Positions 4,020-20,065 of a DNA stretch of 64,000 bases are shown here, one piece after another (the first letter of the stretch is position 1; every line of letters starts with the position of its first letter). Source of the DNA: Lactobacillus johnsonii (GTDB lineage Bacteria; Bacillota; Bacilli; Lactobacillales; Lactobacillaceae); assembly GCF_013487865.1 (NCBI RefSeq), contig NZ_CP047409.1, positions 620,001-684,000 of the forward strand. The letters are read 5' to 3'. Both the position numbers and the translations under genes were made by a program. The notes beneath the pieces were generated by a model that was given only the letters and a program-made list of their open reading frames with translations, was not told the origin of the DNA and did not search any database.

Positions 4020-4055
4020 TATGCCGTTTGAGTAGCAATAATTGTATATTTAACC

Positions 4056-4132
4056 GAATTGGTAAAAAAATGAACTGGTTTGGTATTTTTTGTATTTTTA
4101 TTTTAAAGAAAGGAATAAAATACAGGTATAAA
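4056..4132 (+). promoter_or_regulatory. candidate LytTR-type regulated promoter (site A)
   Basis: Two 9-base direct repeats, GAATTGGTA at 4056 and GGTTTGGTA at 4077, start exactly 21 bases apart. A minus-10-like TATAAA lies at 4127-4132. The 14-base string TTTGGTATTTTTTG at 4079-4092 recurs exactly at 11269-11282, upstream of the bacteriocin pheromone gene. Repeats 21 bp apart are the known binding pattern of PlnC/PlnD-type LytTR regulators. The repeat-to-minus-10 distance is 50 bases here and 38-39 at the other three sites, about one helical turn more. Binding is inference. Confidence 0.55.
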
Positions 4133-4167: not shown

Positions 4168-4557
4168 ATGAAAAATTGGGGTTTAACAGCCATGTACATT
4201 GTCGTAATGTTACTAGGCTTCTTTGAATTGTATCGTACCTTCAGATTTTATAAGTGGGATAAAAAGGCAAAACAACTTGCAACTGCACCTTATGTAATAT
4301 ACTTTGGAACCTTCATTAGTGCAGTATTGATTATCGTACCAGTCATGTTCTTGTTAGGGGATACGAATCCTTATATTCCACACTTTTTATATGTTATTCT
4401 AGGAATTATTTTAATTATCGTATCACTTTTAATGTACTGGCGTGGACATCAAATGGCTAAAAAGTTGGGCAAGGATGATAGTAATTTAGCCGTTTGGCAA
4501 ATTTATTTAATTAGTACGGTAATTCTATTTAGTGGATTTGTAAATTTCTTTAAGTAA
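4168..4557 (+). CDS. four-helix membrane protein, unknown function
   Basis: I do not recognise this 129-residue protein. It has about four hydrophobic helices (near residues 5-20, 45-65, 72-92 and 110-128) joined by short charged loops such as RFYKWDKKAK and RGHQMAKKLGKDDS. There is no signal peptidase or lipobox site. ATG 4168 has GAGGAAAT upstream; a GTG at 4153 is less likely. It is monocistronic between two terminators. Its promoter resembles those of the bacteriocin locus 7 kb away, which suggests a role in immunity or in processing by the bacteriocin system, but no family evidence supports this. Confidence 0.8.
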   Translation: MKNWGLTAMYIVVMLLGFFELYRTFRFYKWDKKAKQLATAPYVIYFGTFISAVLIIVPVMFLLGDTNPYIPHFLYVILGIILIIVSLLMYWRGHQMAKKLGKDDSNLAVWQIYLISTVILFSGFVNFFK

Positions 4558-10139: not shown

Positions 10140-10367
10140 ATGGTGAAAAGAGAGAAATCTAAGCAGAAAAATTTAGGAATTTATAGTAGCTTGAAATCAG
10201 TTATTATTAATACAGTCTCATTCTTTGTAATGAGTTCTATAGTAGTGGGAATTTCTAATTGGAGTGAATCTCAAAGCTTAATACTGAAAACGTCAGAATA
10301 TCTTGGATTAATAGGTGGAAGTCTGATTGGTGGAATTATAATGAGTTTCTTTTTTGGTGAAAAATAA
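10140..10367 (+). CDS. small two-helix membrane protein
   Basis: 75 residues: a basic N-terminus (MVKREKSKQK), a hydrophobic segment at about 22-42 and a glycine-rich one at about 54-73 (GLIGGSLIGGIIMSFFFG). I do not recognise the family. ATG 10140 has AGGAGA close upstream. It follows the DUF4097-like gene by a few bases and ends in the shared terminator before udk. DUF4097 proteins often sit beside small membrane partners, so a membrane complex is possible. Confidence 0.65.
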   Translation: MVKREKSKQKNLGIYSSLKSVIINTVSFFVMSSIVVGISNWSESQSLILKTSEYLGLIGGSLIGGIIMSFFFGEK

Positions 10368-10396
10368 CCCCGTGGAAAACCACGAGGTTATTTTTA
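10362..10396. terminator. bidirectional terminator before udk
   Basis: AATAACC-C-CGTGG pairs with CCACG-A-GGTTATT, flanked by A and T runs. It serves the small membrane gene and the leftward uridine kinase gene. Confidence 0.8.
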
Positions 10397-11029
10397 TTTG
10401 ACTGTACTTAAAACTGAACGAATCTTCGTAGTAAGCATATCGATAGCAACATCATTTTCTCCACCTTCTGGAACAATGATATCAGCATAACGCTTAGTTG
10501 GTTCAATGAATTGATTATACATGGGCTTAACCGTTGCTAAGTATTGATTAATTACTGATTCTACAGAACGTCCACGTTCTTGTGTATCACGCTCTAATCT
10601 TCTGATAAAACGAATATCATCATCAGTATCTACAAAGACTTTAATACTCATTAAATCACGTAAATTTTCTTCGCCTAAAACTAGGATACCCTCTAAGATA
10701 ATAATATCGGCTGGTTCAGTGTGAATTGTCTTTTCACTTCTTGTATGAGCGGTAAAGTCATAAACTGGCATTTCAACTGCCTTATAGTCCATTAATTGAC
10801 GTAATTGTTCAACAAGAAGTGGCATGTCAAAGGCATCAGGATGGTCGTAGTTGATTTTTTTACGGTCTGCCATTGATAAGTTGTCGTTGTTCTTGTAGTA
10901 AGAATCTTGCGTCATAATTAAGATATGGTCGTCTTGTTGTAATTGGTCATAAATTTCATGGGCGATGGTTGTTTTACCACTACCAGAACCACCAGCAATT
11001 CCAATGATAATAGGGCGTTTACTTTGCAC
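10394..11029 (-). CDS. udk: uridine kinase
   Basis: Phosphorylates uridine and cytidine to UMP and CMP in pyrimidine salvage. It has 211 residues, normal for the family. The P-loop GGSGSGKT is at 13-20, with DSYYKNN and DHPDAFD near 42-65 as in other uridine kinases. The start is GTG 11029, with AGGAGA eight bases upstream. It is a single gene, transcribed leftward from the intergenic region it shares with the bacteriocin pheromone gene. Confidence 0.93.
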
Positions 11030-11357
11030 AATAAAATCTCCTTTTTTAAACTATTACAATAATACCTTAAAATTATGCCCTATGATAGCTTTCTGAGCAA
11101 TAATCTTGACAAATATGTTTTTTATAGTGAAATATTTTGGAACTAGTTAAAAATAAATATCTTGTTCACTATTAATATTTATAAAATTAATTCTCTTTCA
11201 AAAAAATATATATTTACTAGTAGTACGTTATAGAAAAAGAATACTAAATCAGTAATCAAATTGACCAATTTGGTATTTTTTGATTTTTTAGATAGTAAAA
11301 GATGGTAATATTTAAGACATAAAAATGTTATTAATTGTTTTAGAGGAGAGAATAACA
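11030..11357. other. 328-base divergent regulatory region
   Basis: AT-rich spacer between udk (leftward) and the pheromone gene (rightward). The udk half holds its ribosome site. The right half holds the candidate LytTR repeats (listed separately). I see no other gene or structured RNA. Confidence 0.6.
11246..11311 (+). promoter_or_regulatory. candidate LytTR-type regulated promoter of the pheromone gene (site B)
   Basis: Direct repeats AAATCAGTA at 11246 and AATTTGGTA at 11267 start 21 bases apart. The extended minus-10 TGG-TAATAT has its hexamer at 11306-11311, 39 bases after the second repeat. The lack of a good minus-35 fits an activator-dependent promoter. The adjacent LytTR regulator (14321-15118) is the natural ligand. 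Confidence 0.65.
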
Positions 11358-11513
11358 ATGAAAGAAATTAAAAAAGAAAATATTGTTAAGAAAGTTATTT
11401 TAACTGAAGAGGAAATGAGTGAAGTTACTGGTGGAGCTAGAGTAAATGCCTTTGCTGGTGGTGGAAAAATTAGTAAAAATATATTTTACTGGACGCGTAA
11501 TATTTGGAAATAA
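11358..11513 (+). CDS. double-glycine leader peptide, probable bacteriocin-inducing pheromone
   Basis: 51-residue peptide. The 26-residue leader ends ILTEEEMSEVTGG, a classic double-glycine leader cut by C39-peptidase exporters such as the one at 15131. The predicted mature peptide is 25 residues, from ARVNAFAGG to NIW K, basic and ending in aromatic residues. Its small size and position just before a sensor kinase gene point to an inducing pheromone, not a killing bacteriocin. Its promoter carries the LytTR-like repeats. ATG 11358 has AGAGGAGAG upstream. The kinase gene starts two bases after its stop. Confidence 0.85.
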   Translation: MKEIKKENIVKKVILTEEEMSEVTGGARVNAFAGGGKISKNIFYWTRNIWK

Positions 11514-11515
11514 AA

Positions 11516-12822
11516 ATGTTATTAGTATATGTTCTTTTAATGCTTGCTTCTGGAATAACTGACTTATGGATATTCTTTAGAATTTCTCAAGTTGCAGCTA
11601 GCAAAAAAATATTTTGAGTCTAGGTGCAGTGGTACTATTACTTCCCATTTTATGTGTGGGAGTTATCGAACTAGCTACTTTTTTAGAAATTTTATTTTTT
11701 GTATTTTATTTTAGAAAAAGTAAAGAAAAGGATGTGGCTATTGGATCAATTCTAATTGTGGGAGTTGTAGATTCCATCGTAGATATATTAGCCAGTATCT
11801 TAGCGGAGCTTTTGTTCATTGAGGATGCAATTTATCTCAATTTATTAGTCCAAATTATCGTTTTAATTTTTACTGTCTTTATAATTGAAATATTTCATAA
11901 ATATTTTTACTCAGATTTAATAAGTGAGAATCACAAGGTGTTTATTGGACTTCTGTTCTACTTGTATGTCTCCACCACTTTAACAATAATTTTTTACAGG
12001 CAAACTAGAAAGGTTACATCGTTAAGCATATTTTTTACAATTTTTGTATTAATACAAGTAGTCTTTGCAGTAGCCACTTACGGGGAACTAATAAATATTC
12101 AAAAACATCTTTTGAAAAAGTCCCAACAAGACAAACTAATAAAAGAGCAAAAACAACTTCAAGAATACACGCGATACTTAGAAGAGAGCGAAGATGAACT
12201 GCGTGCTTTTCGCCATGATTATCGAAATATGTTTAATTCATTAAAAATCAGTGCACAAGAGGGAGATACGAAGGAACTAATTCAAAAACTAGACGAATAT
12301 ACTAAGACTAATTTAAATGCCAAATCATTTGAAAAGTATAGAGATGTTAATCATATTAAAATAAAATCTTTGAAAAGCATTATTATTGCTAAGTTAACAG
12401 AAATGTATGGATCAAAAATCCCATATAATTTCGAATGTAGAGATGATATTACTAAAATCCCTAACAATATTAATGGATTGGATTTAGTTAGAATTATTGG
12501 CATCAGTTGTGATAATGCAATTGAAGAAAGTAAAGCATTATTGAAGCAGAATAAAAAAGCTCATATTGAAATTATGATTAGTTCAAATGAGGATGGCGAA
12601 TTTGAATATGAAATTCAGAATAAAAGAAGAGATTCAGAAATTTCACTTAAACAAATCCAGCAACGTGGTTATTCAACGAAGAAAAGTCATTCTGGCATGG
12701 GTTTAGCCAATATCAATAGTATTAAGAATAAATATGAAAATATGACAATCTCTTATGAAGTGCCGAAGGGATACTTTGATTTCTATCTCGTAATTGAACC
12801 AGAGGAGCTAATTAACAGTTAA
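11516..12822 (+). CDS. bacteriocin pheromone sensor histidine kinase (HPK10), N-terminal frameshift
   Basis: Membrane sensor for the pheromone. The frame opened by ATG 11516 encodes a first membrane helix (MLLVYVLLMLASG...) but ends at TGA 11614-11616 just after seven A residues at 11603-11609. The rest of the kinase continues in another frame to 12822. One more A would join them into a protein of about 435 residues, normal for this family. The downstream part has several membrane helices, phospho-acceptor His in FRHDYRNMFNSLK, the N-box DNAIEES and the G-box GMGLANI. A TTG restart at 11614 lacks a ribosome site. It is either inactivated or switched by slippage on the A tract. Confidence 0.8.
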
Positions 12823-12965: not shown

Positions 12966-14123
12966 ATGATTAAAACACAAGTAGTTAAGCTAAAAGTTAA
13001 TAAAACAATGCAAAAGCATCTTGATAATTTGTGCGACTATCGTAGGTATTGCTGGAACAAAGGATTAGAAACTTGGCAATTAATGTATGAAGCTCATACA
13101 TTAAATAGAAAAGATAATCCTAGCCCTAATGAACGCAGGGTCCGTGATGAATTAGTAGCTAAGAAAGAAGATTGGCAGTATGAATTATCTGCACGTTGTC
13201 TTCAATTAGTGGTTAAAGATTTGGCTAATGCTTGGAAGAACTTCTTTGATAAGGCTCAATCTGATTGGGGTAAGCCTAGTTTCAAATCAAAGAAAGCCCC
13301 TAGACAAAGCTTTAAAACTGATCGAGCTAAGATTGTTAATGGCAAGCTTCGACTTGATAAACCTAGAAGTGTCTCAAAAGAAGATTGGTTTGATTTGTCT
13401 AGTTATGGGGCCTTAAAGATGAGTGAAGTTAAAGTAGTAAGTATCTTCAAAGAAAAAAACGCTTATTATGCGGCTCTTCCCTATGAAGAAAAGATTGAAT
13501 ATAAATCTAAAACTCATCAAAAGACAGCAGTTGATGTCAATGTCGGTCACTTTAATTACACAGATGGACAAATCAATGTTTTGCCTGTTAAACTGCAAAA
13601 ACTATATAAACGTATCAAGCATTATCAAAGGATGCTAGTCCGTAAAAGAGAAATTAATGGGAAATCAGCTATTAAATCAAATAATTACTCTGCAGTGAGA
13701 ACCAAACTGCAAAGAGATTATCGCAAGGTAGCTAATATTCAAAATGATCTTTTACAGAAGTTTACTACTAAGCTTGTAGATAATTACGACCAAATCGTAA
13801 TTGAAGACTTAGCAGTCAAAGACATGATGATGACGCACGTAGCTTCAAAAGGTATGCAGAGGTCTTTATTTAGTAAGTTTAGACAGATATTAACTTATAA
13901 GTGTGATTGGTATGGCAAAGAATTAATCTTAGCTGATAAAACATATCCATCAACACAAAGATGCGCTAAATGCGGATACGTCAAAACGGGTGATGAAAAA
14001 ATTACTTTGCAAGGCAATCAAAAGCATGGCACCAAACATAATGAGTATATCTGTTATAAGTGTGATTACAGTAATGATCGAGATGAAAATGCAGTTTTAA
14101 ACCTTTTAGCTTTAGCAAGATAA
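12966..14123 (+). CDS. tnpB: TnpB RNA-guided nuclease of the IS200/IS605 family
   Basis: 385-residue accessory protein. Known TnpB proteins are nucleases guided by an RNA made from the element's right end. The RuvC catalytic set appears complete: Asp 190 (TAVDVN), Glu 280 (IVIEDL) and Asp 371/373 (NDRDENAVLNL). The zinc-finger CAKCG...CYKC is at 333-366. Positions match those of the studied ISDra2 protein (D191, E278). The RuvC-I wording VDVNVG differs from the usual GIDLG but keeps the Asp. The start ATG 12966 has a strong AAGGAGGTG. The protein looks intact, so it is not a nuclease-dead TldR-type repressor. No tnpA is present, so movement would need one in trans. Confidence 0.92.
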   Translation: MIKTQVVKLKVNKTMQKHLDNLCDYRRYCWNKGLETWQLMYEAHTLNRKDNPSPNERRVRDELVAKKEDWQYELSARCLQLVVKDLANAWKNFFDKAQSDWGKPSFKSKKAPRQSFKTDRAKIVNGKLRLDKPRSVSKEDWFDLSSYGALKMSEVKVVSIFKEKNAYYAALPYEEKIEYKSKTHQKTAVDVNVGHFNYTDGQINVLPVKLQKLYKRIKHYQRMLVRKREINGKSAIKSNNYSAVRTKLQRDYRKVANIQNDLLQKFTTKLVDNYDQIVIEDLAVKDMMMTHVASKGMQRSLFSKFRQILTYKCDWYGKELILADKTYPSTQRCAKCGYVKTGDEKITLQGNQKHGTKHNEYICYKCDYSNDRDENAVLNLLALAR

Positions 14124-14320: not shown

Positions 14321-15118
14321 TTGAAATATCCAGTAATTATTTGTGATGACGATAAAACACTAGCAAATAATTTAGTAAATAATGTGAAATACGCAGCTCA
14401 GAATTTAGTTGAAGACAATACAGCTTATGAAAATGTGGAGATTAGTGTAGAGCAAGTTGCCACTACCTTTGAGCAAGTCGTAAGTTATGTAGTGGCTAAG
14501 GATATTCAAAATGCAATTTACTTCTTAGATATTGAATTAAGTCAAAATTCTGAAGCTAAGAATGGAGTAGATTTAGCAGAATTCATCAAAAAACAAGATC
14601 CGAATGCTCAGATTATTTTTGTTACTGCTTATGATAAGTACGCCCCCTTAACTTATCGAAGACGAATTGGTGCAATTGACTATATTAATAAAGCACTAGA
14701 CCAAAATGATATGATGAAGCGTCTAGAAGAAACAATTACTGGGGCGATTCAAAGTATTAACAATCTTACAAAGTCTGGAAGAAAAGAGCTTGTTTATAAA
14801 GTAGGCCGCAGGATAAATAAGGTAGAAGATACTAATATCTATTATCTTGAAAATAGCCCTACACAGCATAAAGTCACTCTAATAACTGAAACTGGTTCAG
14901 CTGAATTTAGAAGCAATATTTCAAAAATTAGTGATGAAAATGACTTTCTTGTTAAAATATCTCAATCTTGCGTAGTTAATCCAAATAATATTGATAGCAT
15001 TGATTTTTCGAAAAAGACCATAACATTTCCTAATGGGGATGAAGTAATATTTGCTCGTAGCTTCAAAAAACATGTCAAGAATTTACTAAATAAATATCCG
15101 GAAATTAACGTTAAATAA
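14321..15118 (+). CDS. LytTR-family response regulator of the bacteriocin locus
   Basis: Transcription activator of 265 residues. The receiver domain has acidic DDD at 9-11, phospho-acceptor Asp 70 (YFLDIEL) and the VTAYDKYA segment at 101-108. The C-terminal LytTR DNA-binding domain covers about 150-260. It should bind 9-bp repeats 21 bp apart, as seen at four promoters in this window. The start codon is TTG 14321 with no clear ribosome site: the upstream transposon has replaced the first base of the original ATG and removed coupling to the kinase gene. Expression may be low. The exporter genes follow in the same direction. Confidence 0.9.
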   Translation: MKYPVIICDDDKTLANNLVNNVKYAAQNLVEDNTAYENVEISVEQVATTFEQVVSYVVAKDIQNAIYFLDIELSQNSEAKNGVDLAEFIKKQDPNAQIIFVTAYDKYAPLTYRRRIGAIDYINKALDQNDMMKRLEETITGAIQSINNLTKSGRKELVYKVGRRINKVEDTNIYYLENSPTQHKVTLITETGSAEFRSNISKISDENDFLVKISQSCVVNPNNIDSIDFSKKTITFPNGDEVIFARSFKKHVKNLLNKYPEINVK

Positions 15119-15130
15119 AAGGTAAGACTT

Positions 15131-17290
15131 ATGTTATTCAAATATAAATCTGTTTATGTACCTCAAGTAGATGAGATGGATTGCGGAGTTGCTTGTCTAG
15201 CAATGATCTTAAAGCAGTATCAATCTCGTGTGTCTTTAGCACATTTGCGTCACGAAGCTCGCACAAATCTTGAAGGCACAACTACGCTGGGACTAGTTAA
15301 AACAGCACAGAAATTTAATTTTAAAACTGAAGCCGTAAAAGCTGATATGTCTCTTTTTAATGAGGATACTATTCAATACCCTTTTATCGTGCATGTTCTT
15401 AAGCAAGGAGAATTACTTCATTATTACGTAGTTCTTAAAAATACTAAGAATTACTTAGTAATTGCCGATCCTGATCCATCAGTTGGCATAATAAAGATGC
15501 CTAAAGATAAATTTGCTCAAGAATGGACTGGTATTGCGCTTTTTATGGTTCCGAATGAAGATTTTGAACCAATTAAAGAAAAGAAAAATAACCTATGGTC
15601 TCTCTTTCCATATATGTTTAAGCAAAAGCGGCTGATGATTAATATCATTTTAGCCGCTTTATTAATGACAATAATTAGTATTTGTAGTTCATACTTTGTG
15701 CAAGGAATAATCGATACTTATATTCCCGATGGAACTTATCAGACTCTTTCAATTTTAGCTGTTGGACTATTAATTGCTTATATTTTTAATTCAATCTTTT
15801 CTTATGGACAGAATTTTTTATTAAATGTTCTAGGTCAAAGATTAAGTATTGATTTAAACCTCCAATATATAAGGCATATTTTTGAATTGCCAATGGAATT
15901 CTTTGTGACTAGAAGAACTGGTGAAATAACCTCACGTTTCTCTGATGCAAGTAGAATTATTGATGCTCTAGCAAGTACTGTTATTTCACTTTTCTTAGAC
16001 TTAGCGATTGTAATTGTAATGGGACTAGTGTTAGCTGCTCAAAATATGACCTTATTTGGAATCACATTATTAGCTTTACCAGTATATGCTGTAGTAATTC
16101 TGGGATTTACTAAGAAATTTGAAAAGTTAAATGATGAACAAATGGAGAGCAATGCAGTACTAAGTTCTTCAGTCATCGAAGATATTCAAGGTATTGAAAC
16201 TATCAAAGCTCTCAATAGTGAAGATACAAGATATCGTAGAATCGATAGCCAATTTGTAAATTATTTAAAGAAGTCATTTAAATATAGTAAGGCTGAGAGT
16301 TTGCAGACGGCGTTAAAGACATTTATTCAACTATCTCTTAATGTAATTATTTTATGGGTTGGCGCACGAGTAGTGATGCAAGGACAGATGAGTATCGGTC
16401 AATTAATGACTTTTAATGCGTTACTATCTTATTTCATTGACCCACTTCAAAATATTATTAACTTACAACCTCGTCTTCAATCAGCTAGTGTTGCACAAAA
16501 TAGATTGAACGAGGTTTATCAGGTGCAAAGTGAATTTAATGCAGATACTTCTATCCAGAACTCAGCTGCTTTAGAAGGAATGATTGAATACAAGCATGTT
16601 GATTATCGATATGGTTATGGGACGGATGTTTTAAAAAACATTAATCTAAAAATTAAGCCAGATGAAAAATTAGCAATTGTTGGCATGAGTGGATCAGGAA
16701 AATCGACAATGGTTAAGTTACTCGTTGATTTCTTTTCACCAAGTAAGGGAGAAGTAACTTTAAATGGTCATGCAACTAGTGAAGTTAATAAACATACCTT
16801 ACGCTCATATGTTAACTATGTTCCTCAAACGCCATATATCTTTTCTGGAACAGTTAAGAAGAATTTATTACTCGGCTGCAGACCGGATATTAGCGAAGAA
16901 GATGTAATTAAAGCCTGTCAGATTGCTGGAATTGATCAGGAGATAGCTAGTTTGCCACTACAATTCGAGACAAAGTTAGATGAGAATGCCAAGATTTTAT
17001 CCGGTGGACAAAAGCAGAGATTAACTATTGCTAGAGCATTACTCTCGCCAGCAAAAGTTTTTATCTTTGATGAAGTAACAAGTGGTTTAGATACAATTAC
17101 AGAAAAAAGAGTAGTTGACAATCTTATGAAACTAAAAGACAAGACAATCATTTTTATTGCACACCGTCTAGCCATTGCAGAACGTGCAGATAAGGTGGTT
17201 GTAATTGACCAGGGGCAGATTGTTGAAGAAGGAAGTCATGAAGAGCTTATGGAGCAACATGGTTTTTATTATGACTTAGTAAAGGGATAG
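15131..17290 (+). CDS. bacteriocin/pheromone ABC exporter with C39 peptidase
   Basis: Inner-membrane exporter of 719 residues that cuts double-glycine leaders and secretes the peptide. The N-terminal C39 protease has Cys 18 (EMDCGVACLAM), His 97 (LLHYYV) and Asp 113 (ADPDP). A six-helix membrane domain spans about 165-450. The ATPase has Walker A GMSGSGKST near 518-526, the signature LSGGQKQR and Walker B VFIFDEVTSGLD. All catalytic motifs are intact. ATG 15131 follows a modest AAAGG. Its substrate here should be the pheromone at 11358. It is in an operon with the regulator upstream and the accessory gene downstream. Confidence 0.93.
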   Translation: MLFKYKSVYVPQVDEMDCGVACLAMILKQYQSRVSLAHLRHEARTNLEGTTTLGLVKTAQKFNFKTEAVKADMSLFNEDTIQYPFIVHVLKQGELLHYYVVLKNTKNYLVIADPDPSVGIIKMPKDKFAQEWTGIALFMVPNEDFEPIKEKKNNLWSLFPYMFKQKRLMINIILAALLMTIISICSSYFVQGIIDTYIPDGTYQTLSILAVGLLIAYIFNSIFSYGQNFLLNVLGQRLSIDLNLQYIRHIFELPMEFFVTRRTGEITSRFSDASRIIDALASTVISLFLDLAIVIVMGLVLAAQNMTLFGITLLALPVYAVVILGFTKKFEKLNDEQMESNAVLSSSVIEDIQGIETIKALNSEDTRYRRIDSQFVNYLKKSFKYSKAESLQTALKTFIQLSLNVIILWVGARVVMQGQMSIGQLMTFNALLSYFIDPLQNIINLQPRLQSASVAQNRLNEVYQVQSEFNADTSIQNSAALEGMIEYKHVDYRYGYGTDVLKNINLKIKPDEKLAIVGMSGSGKSTMVKLLVDFFSPSKGEVTLNGHATSEVNKHTLRSYVNYVPQTPYIFSGTVKKNLLLGCRPDISEEDVIKACQIAGIDQEIASLPLQFETKLDENAKILSGGQKQRLTIARALLSPAKVFIFDEVTSGLDTITEKRVVDNLMKLKDKTIIFIAHRLAIAERADKVVVIDQGQIVEEGSHEELMEQHGFYYDLVKG

Positions 17291-17300
17291 GTGAAGATAG

Positions 17301-17894
17301 ATGGACGTAAAAGACTATGAAAGCACAGAATTCTATTCCTATAAATTTAAAAATTTTTCGACAATGATTATTATTCCAGCTGCTATTCTTGTCTTCCTTG
17401 TATTTATTGGTTCTTTTTTTGCAATTAGACAGAGTACAGTTTCTTCAGTCGGAGTTATTGAGCCAGTGACTGTGATTAAACAAAAAACTACTAATTATGA
17501 TGAGGGGCAAATTGTAACAAAACATGGTCAAAAATGGGTAGCTCATATTGATCAAGATGATGCAGTAAATTTGATGCCCATGATAGCAGCCAAGAAACAG
17601 GTGAAGATAATCACTTACGTACCAAGTAATAAGGTTTCGGCTATTAAAAAGGGACAGACGATAAACTTTTCTGTCCCAACAGGAGATGGCTTGACCAGTA
17701 GATTAATTGGTAAAGTGAGAGAAATTGGCGTTTATCCAGTAAATATAAATAAGCAGAGTGGCTATGAGATCATCTCGACTGCGAAAATTAATGATGAAAA
17801 TGTTAAGTATGGGATGCAGGGAAATGCGACAATTCTCACGGGTAGTAGCACTTATTTTGAATACTTTTTAGATAAGATCTTGAATAAGAAATAA
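17301..17894 (+). CDS. bacteriocin export accessory protein
   Basis: 197-residue bitopic membrane protein: short cytoplasmic N-terminus, one hydrophobic helix at about 22-45, then an extracytoplasmic part with beta-rich segments. It occupies the place of the HlyD-like accessory factor in class II bacteriocin loci, which is usually about 450 residues and has a coiled-coil hairpin. Here only the parts flanking the hairpin seem present. It follows the exporter by 10 bases with GGTGAAG at a suitable distance. The short form may be normal for this species group; I cannot exclude a deletion. Confidence 0.75.
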
Positions 17895-17938: not shown

Positions 17939-18223
17939 ATGAATGAAAATAAGCTAAAAATGATGTTGACTAAAATCAAAGCAAATGTTGATATTGCAAC
18001 TGATCCAGAAGCACAAAAACTAATTGAATCAGCACTTGATGCAGTAGATAGAAAAATTGATTTACAAAAAGTTATGCATGATCTAAAGCAAGATATTAAT
18101 ATGTATTCTGTGGCGCATGGATTTAAGCTACCAGAGACTTTGACAAAGTTACAGCTTTTATTAGATAAAAATCCTGATAAATGGGTTGGTGCAGGTGCTG
18201 GTGGAGTTTGGCCAGTAATCTAG
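17939..18223 (+). CDS. bacteriocin immunity-like protein (enterocin A immunity type)
   Basis: 94 residues, mostly helical, without membrane helices. Size and pattern fit the four-helix-bundle immunity proteins of pediocin-like bacteriocins. The C-terminus is unusual: DKWVGAGAGGVWPVI, rich in Gly and Trp. The C-terminus decides specificity in this family. The protein at 19464-19778 is a paralog with a similar Trp/Gly-rich tail. RBS AGGTGAGG is upstream. No bacteriocin gene accompanies it. The family call is by eye and moderate. Confidence 0.65.
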   Translation: MNENKLKMMLTKIKANVDIATDPEAQKLIESALDAVDRKIDLQKVMHDLKQDINMYSVAHGFKLPETLTKLQLLLDKNPDKWVGAGAGGVWPVI

Positions 18224-18240
18224 ATATAAATAGAATTTTT

Positions 18241-18290
18241 AAAAGTACCGAATTAGTCACAAACAATACTAATTTGGTACTTTTTATTTT
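18241..18290 (+). terminator. terminator-like hairpin overlapping regulatory site C
   Basis: AGTACCGAATTAGT pairs with ACTAATTTGGTACT with one G-T pair, then TTTTTATTTTT. It would end the transcript that runs from the regulator through the first immunity gene. Confidence 0.65.
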
Positions 18291-18314
18291 TGGACAATTT
18301 TAAAATGCTAAAAT
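18250..18314 (+). promoter_or_regulatory. candidate LytTR-type regulated promoter (site C)
   Basis: Direct repeats GAATTAGTC at 18250 and AATTTGGTA at 18271 start 21 bases apart. The extended minus-10 TGC-TAAAAT has its hexamer at 18309-18314, 38 bases after the second repeat. The same stretch also forms an inverted repeat (TACCGAATTAGT with ACTAATTTGGTA) followed by T residues, so it can double as a terminator for the upstream immunity gene. Confidence 0.6.
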
Positions 18315-18352
18315 TTAAATCTATAGGGAAAATAATTAGGAAGGAAAAATAA

Positions 18353-18586
18353 ATGAAAATTATTGAGGCCAATGAAAAAGCAGCTTCAAGAAAAGAAAGA
18401 TGGATAGTCCTAAGTATAAGTTTGATCTTCGGAGACTTAATGAACAAATTATTTTTACGGTTGACTTCGATTGATAGCTTTATTCTAAGCATGGTAATTG
18501 GAATCGGAAGCATGTATTTGCTTGAGAGTGGATATTATTATTTTAGAGATGATATTCAGAAAATAATAGAAAAGTTCAAGAAGTAA
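18353..18586 (+). CDS. small two-helix membrane protein of the immunity cluster (copy 1)
   Basis: 77 residues: charged N-terminus MKIIEANEKAASRKERW, then two hydrophobic helices at about 17-32 and 40-58 and a basic tail. It is a paralog of the protein at 19110-19340: both share the pattern M-K-(I/F)-I-E, WIV, (L/I)NKLFL-LT and YYY. ATG 18353 has GGAAGGA upstream. First gene after candidate promoter C. The context suggests immunity or protection against a bacteriocin, but I do not recognise the family. Confidence 0.7.
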   Translation: MKIIEANEKAASRKERWIVLSISLIFGDLMNKLFLRLTSIDSFILSMVIGIGSMYLLESGYYYFRDDIQKIIEKFKK

Positions 18587-18629
18587 TAGGTTTATTCATC
18601 TCAACTTAAATTTTAGGAGGAGAATAAAA

Positions 18630-18905
18630 ATGGCTATAGGATACATTCCAATTATTTTACTTTTAATAATTGCTTTAGGTAATATTACTATTTCACTAAA
18701 ATTGCATAAGATAGTCAGAACCTCTGACGCCTCAAATATCTTAGTGTTTGGAATAGTGACCATGGTTATTTTTGCCTTAAAAGATTTAGATTCATTTTCT
18801 TGGAGTTCAGCAATTGCTTGTATTTTTATGAGTATCGTTGTCTTTAAAGATCTATATAATGAATATCAACTTCAAATAAAAAATAAGTCTGAGGAACATA
18901 ACTAA
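18630..18905 (+). CDS. small three-helix membrane protein of the immunity cluster (copy 1)
   Basis: 91 residues with three hydrophobic segments (about 4-22, 38-52, 57-74) and a charged tail LYNEYQLQIKNKSEEHN. It shares length, helix pattern, an SxKxHK motif after helix 1 and an E/QYxxQxxN tail with the protein at 19781-20065. Three- to four-helix proteins of this size serve as immunity proteins for two-peptide bacteriocins such as lactacin F. RBS TAGGAGGAG is strong. Its stop overlaps the next gene's ATG. Confidence 0.7.
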   Translation: MAIGYIPIILLLIIALGNITISLKLHKIVRTSDASNILVFGIVTMVIFALKDLDSFSWSSAIACIFMSIVVFKDLYNEYQLQIKNKSEEHN

Positions 18906-19123
18906 TGAGAAAGCCATTAACGATTAGATGCATCTTCGCGGGATTTGCTTTTTGTTTACTTCAAACTCTAGGGGATATATTGGTCGGTAGTCAATTAACT
19001 CTTTGGATAATTCTCGGTAATATTCTGTGGGGAGTAATTTTTGCTTACTTAATGTTTAAATTATTAAAAAGAATGCAAGTGCGAAAGAAGCATCAAAGGA
19101 AAGATACAGATGAAATTTATTGA
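18905..19123 (+). CDS. small two-helix membrane protein
   Basis: 72 residues with two hydrophobic segments (about 8-26 and 31-53) and a very basic tail LLKRMQVRKKHQRKDTDE. No double-glycine leader, so it is not a bacteriocin precursor. ATG 18905 overlaps the stop of the gene before (ATGA-style), and GAGGAAC lies upstream. The next gene starts inside its 3' end. Tight coupling makes it part of the immunity block. Family not recognised. Confidence 0.65.
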   Translation: MRKPLTIRCIFAGFAFCLLQTLGDILVGSQLTLWIILGNILWGVIFAYLMFKLLKRMQVRKKHQRKDTDEIY

Positions 19124-19340
19124 AACCACTAATAAGAAAGATGCCCATACTGAGGAATGGATCGTAATTATTCTCAGTGTGATCTTTGCATATTTGATTA
19201 ATAAACTATTTTTATCTTTGACTAATAGCACTAGTATTACAGTGAGTCTTGTAGTTCTAATTGCGAGCATGAGTGTTTTTTCAATCACTTACTATTATGG
19301 TAAAGATAAACTCCAACAAAGGCTAAAAAGCAAAAAGTAA
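19110..19340 (+). CDS. small two-helix membrane protein of the immunity cluster (copy 2)
   Basis: 76 residues; paralog of the protein at 18353-18586, with the same two-helix layout (WIVIILSVIFAYLINKLFL, then a second helix and YYYGKDKLQQ). It starts 14 bases inside the preceding gene, with AAGGAAAG upstream. The duplication of this type together with the three-helix and soluble immunity types suggests that a whole module was copied and then diverged. Confidence 0.7.
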   Translation: MKFIETTNKKDAHTEEWIVIILSVIFAYLINKLFLSLTNSTSITVSLVVLIASMSVFSITYYYGKDKLQQRLKSKK

Positions 19341-19345
19341 GAACC

Positions 19346-19410
19346 AAATTGGTTGTAAAAAGTGCTAAATCGATCCAATTATCATTCTTATTAAAAAATG
19401 ATAGTAAAAT
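19346..19410 (+). promoter_or_regulatory. candidate LytTR-type regulated promoter (site D)
   Basis: Repeats AAATTGGTT at 19346 and AAATCGATC at 19367 start 21 bases apart; the second is a poorer match. TAAAAT at 19405-19410 is 38 bases after the second repeat, the same spacing as site C. A further direct repeat, ATGATAGTA at 19398 and 19421, is also present with a 23-base period and no known role. Confidence 0.45.
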
Positions 19411-19463
19411 TAATAAATGAATGATAGTATTTAAACAAATATAATCCTTTGGAGGACAAAAAC

Positions 19464-19778
19464 ATGAAAAATGAATTGGCACAAGTATTGAATGATTTCA
19501 TTTCACTTGCTAAGACTCATTATGATCGAAAAGGTAACGAATACTTATTAGAACAATTAGAGATTGCCTTAGATAAGACGAATAACAATGTTCAAGATGC
19601 GGTAAACGAAGCACGAACAACCTATCAAAATGTGAATACGATTTGTTTAGTAAACCATCTCCATTTAGAAAAAGATGAAGAGGCATTACTTGAAAAAATT
19701 AAAGAAATTTCAATGAGTAAAGGCTGGCTTGGTGGCTTAAACAGCTGGAATACTACCAATACTTGGCCTGGAAGGTAG
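19464..19778 (+). CDS. bacteriocin immunity-like protein (enterocin A immunity type), copy 2
   Basis: 104 residues, helical and soluble, paralog of the protein at 17939. The tail KGWLGGLNSWNTTNTWPGR is again rich in Trp, Gly and Asn and unlike the body. ATG 19464 follows GGAGGA; the open frame extends 15 bases upstream through a TTG that lies inside that ribosome site. It has its own candidate regulated promoter. The next gene starts two bases after its stop. Confidence 0.68.
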   Translation: MKNELAQVLNDFISLAKTHYDRKGNEYLLEQLEIALDKTNNNVQDAVNEARTTYQNVNTICLVNHLHLEKDEEALLEKIKEISMSKGWLGGLNSWNTTNTWPGR

Positions 19779-19780
19779 GA

Positions 19781-20065
19781 ATGAAAATGCAAGCTTTTTA
19801 TTATGCAATGCCAACTTTAGCAGTAATTGTAATTGCAGCATATATTTTTACTTCAGTTAAGATTCATAAGTTTATCTGGTTTTCACCAGTTGTTTATTTA
19901 GCTTTGATAGGAAGTATAGGACTCTGGATTAAAATTGGTACAAATATTTTTTCTACCTCAGAAACTGGAGTTTTCGGATTGCTTACACTAGAAGCAATTC
20001 TCTTAGAGGGAATTATTGAAGAATATAGATATCAAAAACAGAATCTTGAAAAGAATGAAGAGTAG
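19781..20065 (+). CDS. small three-helix membrane protein of the immunity cluster (copy 2)
   Basis: 94 residues with three hydrophobic segments and the tail IIEEYRYQKQNLEKNEE. Paralog in layout of the protein at 18630. ATG 19781 has GGAAGGTAGG just upstream, overlapping the end of the immunity gene. Last gene of the cluster, ended by a U-tailed hairpin. Confidence 0.68.
   Translation: MKMQAFYYAMPTLAVIVIAAYIFTSVKIHKFIWFSPVVYLALIGSIGLWIKIGTNIFSTSETGVFGLLTLEAILLEGIIEEYRYQKQNLEKNEE

What the first reader, a model, noticed from the sequence alone, without database searches (positions are those of the whole stretch)
17939..20065. Immunity-like gene bank made of duplicated modules and no bacteriocin gene
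Three types occur twice: soluble helical immunity-like (17939, 19464), two-helix membrane (18353, 19110) and three-helix membrane (18630, 19781). One more two-helix gene lies between. No other open frame in the cluster has a double-glycine leader. The locus seems to keep protection against several bacteriocins while making none.
Basis: partly seen in the sequence, partly recalled or inferred. Interest (0 to 1): 0.72.

Follow-up and report, generated by a model that had tools for sequence, protein, structure and literature searches.

The report
Bacteriocin immunity genes without a bacteriocin
A gut Lactobacillus keeps a signalling system, an exporter and seven small genes that look like protection against bacteriocins (bacterial killing peptides), while the bacteriocin genes found at the same spot in its sister species are absent; this is a tidy example of a known situation, not a new kind of system.

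Summary
The seven open frames at 17939-20065 are real. No bacteriocin gene lies among them; a scan that recovers the known bacteriocins of sister loci finds one double-glycine peptide in the whole window, a pheromone-like peptide at 11358 upstream of the histidine kinase, regulator and exporter. The locus is the lactacin F / gassericin T-type cluster of the Lactobacillus johnsonii-gasseri group. At the same spot, sister species carry lactacin F, gassericins T and M, a pediocin-like gene, or an unnamed class II peptide.

Two of three claimed duplications hold, as old paralogues (18353/19110, 42% identity; 18630/19781, 21%). The two soluble proteins share a fold but are different immunity types; 19464 is a PedB/PapB relative. 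18905 is unrelated to the other two-helix genes.

Most likely mechanism (inferred): a quorum-controlled immunity island. The direct repeat of the pheromone promoter also stands before 18353, and in decayed form before 19464, with the -10 box at the same distance. In this assembly the kinase carries a one-base frameshift. The exporter gene is a mosaic where sisters carry the lactacin F module; whether this strain lost that module or never had it cannot be decided. Orphan immunity genes are known, so interest is modest.

The parts
11242..11283 (+). operator-like direct repeat (TACTAAATCAGTAATCAAATTGACCAATTTGGTATTTTTTGA) of the pheromone promoter, -10 box 64 nt from its start
   Evidence: matrix trained on sister loci only, 39.8 bits against a best of 18.8 in five shuffles; fixed -10 spacing; two strong places in the genome; direct repeats before the homologous gaeP promoter described in PMC4788914
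11358..11513 (+). double-glycine leader peptide, pheromone-like (MKEIKKENIVKKVILTEEEMSEVTGG / ARVNAFAGGGKISKNIFYWTRNIWK)
   Evidence: orthologues in G033, G059 and G021, directly before the kinase in G033 and G059
11516..12822 (+). AgrC-type histidine kinase, split by a one-base deletion in the A tract at 11603-11609: N-terminal frame 11516-11617, remainder 11614-12822
   Evidence: 7 A in the window against 8 A in two sisters; continuous frame in G059 and G033; NF046015 99.9 bits, HATPase_c_5 over cut-off
12966..14123 (+). TnpB/OrfB-type transposon gene between kinase and regulator (not part of the immunity function)
   Evidence: 99.5% identical gene at the same place in G059
14321..15118 (+). 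response regulator
   Evidence: orthologues in sister loci, 74-97% identity
15131..17290 (+). peptidase-containing bacteriocin ABC exporter; mosaic gene with a break near 16090
   Evidence: TIGR01193 1064 bits; private-site rate 2.3% before and 15.2% after the break
17301..17894 (+). short exporter accessory protein (197 aa), copy-2 type
   Evidence: TIGR01000 partial match; about 95.5% DNA identity to sisters' second copy, 76% to their first; GaeC is also 197 aa (PMC4788914)
17939..18223 (+). soluble EntA/LciA-type immunity protein whose last eight residues differ from its orthologues
18246..18287 (+). operator-like direct repeat before 18353, -10 box 63 nt from its start
   Evidence: 36.1 bits; spacing; genome-wide search
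18353..18586 (+). two-helix membrane protein (type b)
   Evidence: a relative follows the lafI-like gene in sisters
18630..18905 (+). three-helix membrane protein (type c)
   Evidence: orthologue directly follows gamM in G033; dN/dS 0.21-0.44
18905..19123 (+). small hydrophobic basic protein (type d), two to three hydrophobic segments
   Evidence: 35% identical to the protein directly after an acidocin J1132/gassericin B-like gene in G003; dN/dS 0.21-0.30
19110..19340 (+). two-helix membrane protein, paralogue of 18353 (type b)
   Evidence: dN/dS 0.09-0.19
19342..19383 (+). decayed operator-like repeat before 19464, -10 box 63 nt from its start
   Evidence: seen also before the orthologue in G059, G021 and G071
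19464..19778 (+). PedB/PapB-type class IIa immunity protein
   Evidence: 2IP6 at E = 6e-12, 7e-13 by profile; homologue sits in a pediocin operon on a plasmid; dN/dS 0.08-0.30
19781..20065 (+). three-helix membrane protein, paralogue of 18630 (type c); sister starts suggest the real start is 19787
   Evidence: dN/dS 0.14-0.37

Best explanation
This is a lactacin F / gassericin T-type class II bacteriocin locus in an immunity-only state. Shown by sequence: a pheromone-like peptide, kinase, regulator, exporter and accessory gene, then seven small genes of types that accompany bacteriocins in sister species, and no structural bacteriocin gene. Inferred mechanism: the exported pheromone, from self or from relatives, acts through kinase and regulator; the regulator binds the direct repeats before the pheromone gene and before 18353 (and a decayed copy before 19464), so the immunity genes rise together with the pheromone. 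The two soluble proteins would bind the mannose-PTS receptor once a class IIa or IId peptide has docked and block the pore, as PedB and LciA do. The membrane proteins would guard against two-peptide bacteriocins of the lactacin F, gassericin M or acidocin J1132 kind. The exporter stays because it still processes the pheromone. In this assembly the kinase frame is broken, so the circuit may be off and the immunity genes then expressed only at basal level.
For: Same locus in sister species with bacteriocin genes, and a clean negative here with working positive controls. PedB relation of 19464. Immunity fold of 17939. Neighbours of the membrane types. GamI2 and GamI3, described beside gamY/gamM in L. 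gasseri LM19 with EntA-immunity domains, correspond to 17939 and 19464 (PMC7162838; G033 carries the same GamY and GamM). Shared repeat with a -10 box 63-64 nt from its start at 17 of 21 elements tabulated (some of them orthologues of each other), found nowhere else in five genomes except one further site; direct repeats known before gaeP and gaeA (PMC4788914). Purifying selection on the bank genes compared, dN/dS 0.08-0.44.
Against: No protection assay exists. The membrane proteins have no curated-family match, no plasmid relatives and, for type c, no informative fold match. The repeats are also inverted repeats followed by T-runs and could in places act as terminators, although the one before the pheromone has no upstream gene to terminate. 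The kinase frameshift argues that the circuit does not work in this strain, unless it is an assembly error.
Confidence: 0.72

Rival explanations
1. Decaying remnant: the locus lost its bacteriocin genes and kinase function recently, and the immunity genes merely linger without use.
For: Kinase frameshift, transposon gene between kinase and regulator, altered tail of 17939, frameshifted or truncated copies of bank genes in G033 and G071.
Against: All seven bank genes and the exporter are intact, and dN/dS is 0.08-0.44 across species; 19464 and 19781 are identical in sequence to G059.
Confidence: 0.3
2. The locus still makes a bacteriocin: the 25-residue peptide at 11358 is itself antimicrobial, or the exporter serves a peptide encoded elsewhere in the genome.
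For: The peptide is short and cationic with a proper leader; dual pheromone/antimicrobial peptides are known (plantaricin A, from memory).
Against: Its position directly before the kinase and its orthologues in producing sisters mark it as the pheromone. Leader profile, Bacteriocin_IIc, Bacteriocin_II and LafA searches find no structural gene in the genome, and the repeat occurs at no other bacteriocin gene.
Confidence: 0.12
3. The repeat before 18353 is a terminator of 17939 and not an operator; the immunity genes are constitutive.
For: The element is a near-perfect inverted repeat followed by a T-run and lies just after 17939.
Against: The same element lies before the pheromone gene, where the upstream gene is divergent and nothing needs terminating; the -10 box keeps a 63-64 nt distance across genes and species, also where the second half-site has decayed.
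Confidence: 0.2
4. The small membrane proteins (types b, c, d) are not immunity proteins but accessory or unrelated small membrane proteins.
For: No family, plasmid or fold match.
Against: Placement after bacteriocin genes or operons in several species and under the shared repeat.
Confidence: 0.25

Closest known systems
Gassericin M / gassericin T cluster 3 of L. gasseri LM19 (PMC7162838)
   Same: pheromone, kinase, regulator, exporter, accessory gene, then immunity genes GamI2 and GamI3 corresponding to 17939 and 19464
   Different: LM19 carries gamA, gamX, gamY and gamM; none is present here
Lactacin F (laf) locus of the L. johnsonii group and gassericin E locus (PMC4788914)
   Same: order of regulatory and export genes; direct repeats before the pheromone promoter
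   Different: lafA-lafX-lafI or gaeAXI absent here; exporter is a mosaic; a repeat stands before immunity genes alone
blp bacteriocin immunity region of Streptococcus pneumoniae (PMC6422914)
   Same: quorum-controlled locus with a variable set of immunity genes; immunity can persist without a working bacteriocin gene (pncF-out)
   Different: other gene families; in pneumococcus it is often the exporter that is lost, here the exporter is kept and the bacteriocin genes are missing
PedB/PapB and EntA-im/LciA immunity proteins
   Same: 19464: clear sequence relation; 17939: fold
   Different: no cognate peptide gene alongside in this genome

Membership tests
PedB/PapB class IIa immunity proteins (19464) | significant sequence relation to a solved member | tested here: met
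   2IP6 E = 6e-12 over residues 16-103
PedB/PapB class IIa immunity proteins (19464) | gene next to a pediocin-like structural gene (usual, not obligatory) | tested here: not met
   none in the window; a pediocin-like gene is present in the same locus of L. taiwanensis
EntA_Immun (PF08951) immunity proteins (17939) | score over the curated cut-off | tested here: inconclusive
   21.8 bits against 22.1
EntA_Immun (PF08951) immunity proteins (17939) | helical-bundle fold of the family | tested here: met
   AlphaFold2 pLDDT 76; SPy2152, PedB, EntA-im, LciA and the ternary-complex immunity chain are the five best matches, at weak E-values but probabilities 0.91-1.00
class IIa/IId immunity mechanism | binds mannose-PTS together with the bacteriocin | not testable with these tools
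   known for PedB (PMC5077127, abstract) and LciA (8hfs)
lactacin F / gassericin T-type locus | pheromone, kinase, regulator, exporter and accessory gene in this order | tested here: met
   kinase frame broken
lactacin F / gassericin T-type locus | two-peptide structural genes and cognate immunity gene (lafA-lafX-lafI or gatAXI) | tested here: not met
   LafA search of the own genome negative; scan negative
blp-like quorum-controlled immunity region | immunity genes under the same regulator repeats as the pheromone | tested here: inconclusive
   repeats and spacing shared; binding not tested
membrane immunity proteins of two-peptide bacteriocins (types b, c, d) | protects against a named peptide | not testable with these tools
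   only gene neighbourhood

The most novel reading that the evidence does not exclude
A listen-only defence: the strain senses its relatives' pheromone and switches on several different kinds of immunity while carrying no weapon, with the poly(A) tract in the kinase gene acting as a slippage switch between listening and silent states.
Probability: 0.12. Interest if true: 0.6.

Novelty: new member of a known kind. Interest (0 to 1): 0.36.

Why it matters
It shows, in one gut species complex, how bacteriocin structural genes turn over at a fixed chromosomal place while immunity genes and the signalling system stay. It offers a genetically simple test of whether quorum-regulated immunity without bacteriocin production pays. 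It also points to small membrane protein families (types b, c, d) with no curated description that are likely immunity proteins for two-peptide bacteriocins.

Tried and rejected
A recent tandem module duplication: rejected, since gene order is not repeated and orthologues are closer than paralogues. Recent common descent of 17939 and 19464: not supported. A hidden bacteriocin gene in the bank: not found. Structural genes elsewhere in the genome: not found with PF10439, TIGR01847, PF01721 and LafA. Identifying the odd 28-base end of 17939 as the end of a lost bacteriocin gene: no source found in 75 genomes or on plasmids, left open. Relatives of 17939 on viral contigs and of types b, c, d on plasmids: none. 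Fold of the three-helix type: uninformative. Deciding whether the lactacin F module was lost here or gained in sisters: not possible, because where the second exporter copy can be read in sisters it is truncated beyond the mosaic break.

Full report
Observation. Pairwise comparison with shuffled controls supports two paralogue pairs, 18353/19110 (z = 16) and 18630/19781 (z = 8), and not the soluble pair (z = 2.5). Profile-profile comparison also fails to join the soluble pair. 18905 differs from the 18353 type. The order a-b-c-d-b-a-c is not a repeated module.

Is there really no bacteriocin gene? A double-glycine scan was run with positive controls. It recovers LafA, LafX, GatA, GatX, GamY, GamM, a pediocin-like peptide and a further class II peptide in sister loci, with one extra hit that is an immunity gene read from an internal start. 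In the 64 kb window it gives one peptide only, at 11358. Searches of the whole genome with Bacteriocin_IIc, the leader profile, Bacteriocin_II and LafA find no structural gene; the leader profile finds only the 11358 peptide, at E = 0.39. These short models are weak, so a divergent peptide elsewhere is not excluded.

Setting. Upstream lie the peptide at 11358, an AgrC-type kinase, a TnpB-type gene, a response regulator, a peptidase-containing exporter (TIGR01193, 1064 bits) and a short accessory protein. A P-type ATPase gene closes the locus downstream. The same locus occurs in sister genomes of the johnsonii-gasseri group, one of which is Lactobacillus taiwanensis DSM 21401 (G071).

Sisters carry bacteriocins here. 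G021, G059 and G071 have lafA and lafX (sequence recognised from memory as lactacin F) followed by a lafI-like gene and a type b gene cut by an IS30-like element. G033 has gassericin T and M genes identical to those listed in PMC7162838. G059, G058 and G070 have a peptide beginning KIYHATPWQIC or KIYYATPWQIC directly before their 17939 orthologue, and G034 has a related peptide before its 17939 relative. L. taiwanensis has a pediocin-like gene (PF01721, 45 bits) upstream of its 17939 orthologue. So the 17939 type is repeatedly paired with class II peptides, while several other Lactobacillus genomes hold a relative with no bacteriocin gene in the fetched flanks (L038, L040, L043, L044). Orphan immunity genes are common here.

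What the proteins are. 19464 is a PedB/PapB-type immunity protein: 2IP6 at E = 6e-12, with a shared C-terminal TTNTWP, and a plasmid relative sits in a pediocin operon. 17939 scores just under the EntA_Immun cut-off; its predicted model (pLDDT 76) has SPy2152, PedB, EntA-im, LciA and the ternary-complex immunity chain as its five best matches, at weak E-values but high probabilities. Its last eight residues (AGGVWPVI) differ from the ETLSLTNF-type end of its orthologues and the source of the new end is unknown. Types b, c and d match no curated family. Their likely role comes from position: type d follows an acidocin J1132/gassericin B-like gene in G003, type c follows gamM in G033, type b follows the lafI-like gene in sisters. 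Purifying selection is seen in the bank genes compared across species (dN/dS 0.08-0.44; synonymous change is saturated in some comparisons); 18353 was not included in that test.

Regulation. A 42-base element with two half-sites 21 bases apart stands before the pheromone gene (11242) and before 18353 (18246). A matrix trained only on sister loci scores them 39.8 and 36.1 bits against a best of 18.8 in five shuffles. A -10-like box lies 63 or 64 bases from the element start at 17 of the 21 elements tabulated, including decayed ones before 19464 orthologues; one more has it at 62, and three variants in G033 with a different half-site spacing have none. Some of these elements are orthologues of each other, so they are not independent. 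In five genomes the pattern occurs only in this locus, apart from one further site at 4052 that is conserved in G059. Direct repeats before gaeP and gaeA were reported in PMC4788914. Regulator binding is inference.

Damage and history. The kinase has 7 A where two sisters have 8, which splits its frame near codon 30; G059 and G033 have one frame. This could be real, a slippage state or an assembly error. The exporter gene is mosaic: before about 16090 the window differs privately from four copy-1 alleles at 2.3% of sites, after it at 15.2%, far beyond permutations, and the 3' part is 95-100% identical to G021's second copy over most windows. In G021 and G059 the lactacin F module lies between the two copies. 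Either this strain's ancestor lost the module by recombination between copies, or sisters gained it by insertion; the truncated second copies do not allow a decision.

Verdict. An immunity-only, probably quorum-controlled version of a known bacteriocin locus. Comparable states are described for the pneumococcal blp region (PMC6422914), and retention of immunity genes under selection is discussed for lactobacilli (PMC6036575). The protein identities are solid for one gene, good for a second and positional for five. The functional claim needs deletion and challenge tests.

Noticed in passing
window 11600-11617: Poly(A) tract of 7 in the kinase gene against 8 in two sister species, splitting the frame; may be slippage, real loss or assembly error.
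   Followed up: partly
window 4052-4093 and 4170-4557: A third operator-like element with a -10-like box at 64 bases before a gene for a membrane protein of unknown function; the element is conserved in G059.
   Followed up: partly
window 12966-14123: TnpB-type gene between kinase and regulator, 99.5% identical and at the same place in G059, absent from G033.
   Followed up: partly
L033 9569-9763, L034 1043-1237, L035 999-1193, L042 around 3839 (-): Unnamed double-glycine peptides (KIYHATPWQIC..., KIRRLTQYVLY...) sharing the ending NGWL..GPWG, each before a 17939-type immunity gene; the G059 peptide has no Pfam match. Possibly an undescribed class II bacteriocin family.
   Followed up: partly
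window 18196-18223: The 3' end of the 17939 gene is unrelated to its orthologues; it may be a recombination joint carrying the tail of a lost gene.
   Followed up: partly
L032 11194-11367 (-): lafX of L. taiwanensis DSM 21401 appears frameshifted near its C-terminus.
   Followed up: no
L033 about 10230-11455: A CAAX-protease-like membrane protein gene (recognised by eye) sits between the 17939 and 18630 orthologues in G059.
   Followed up: no
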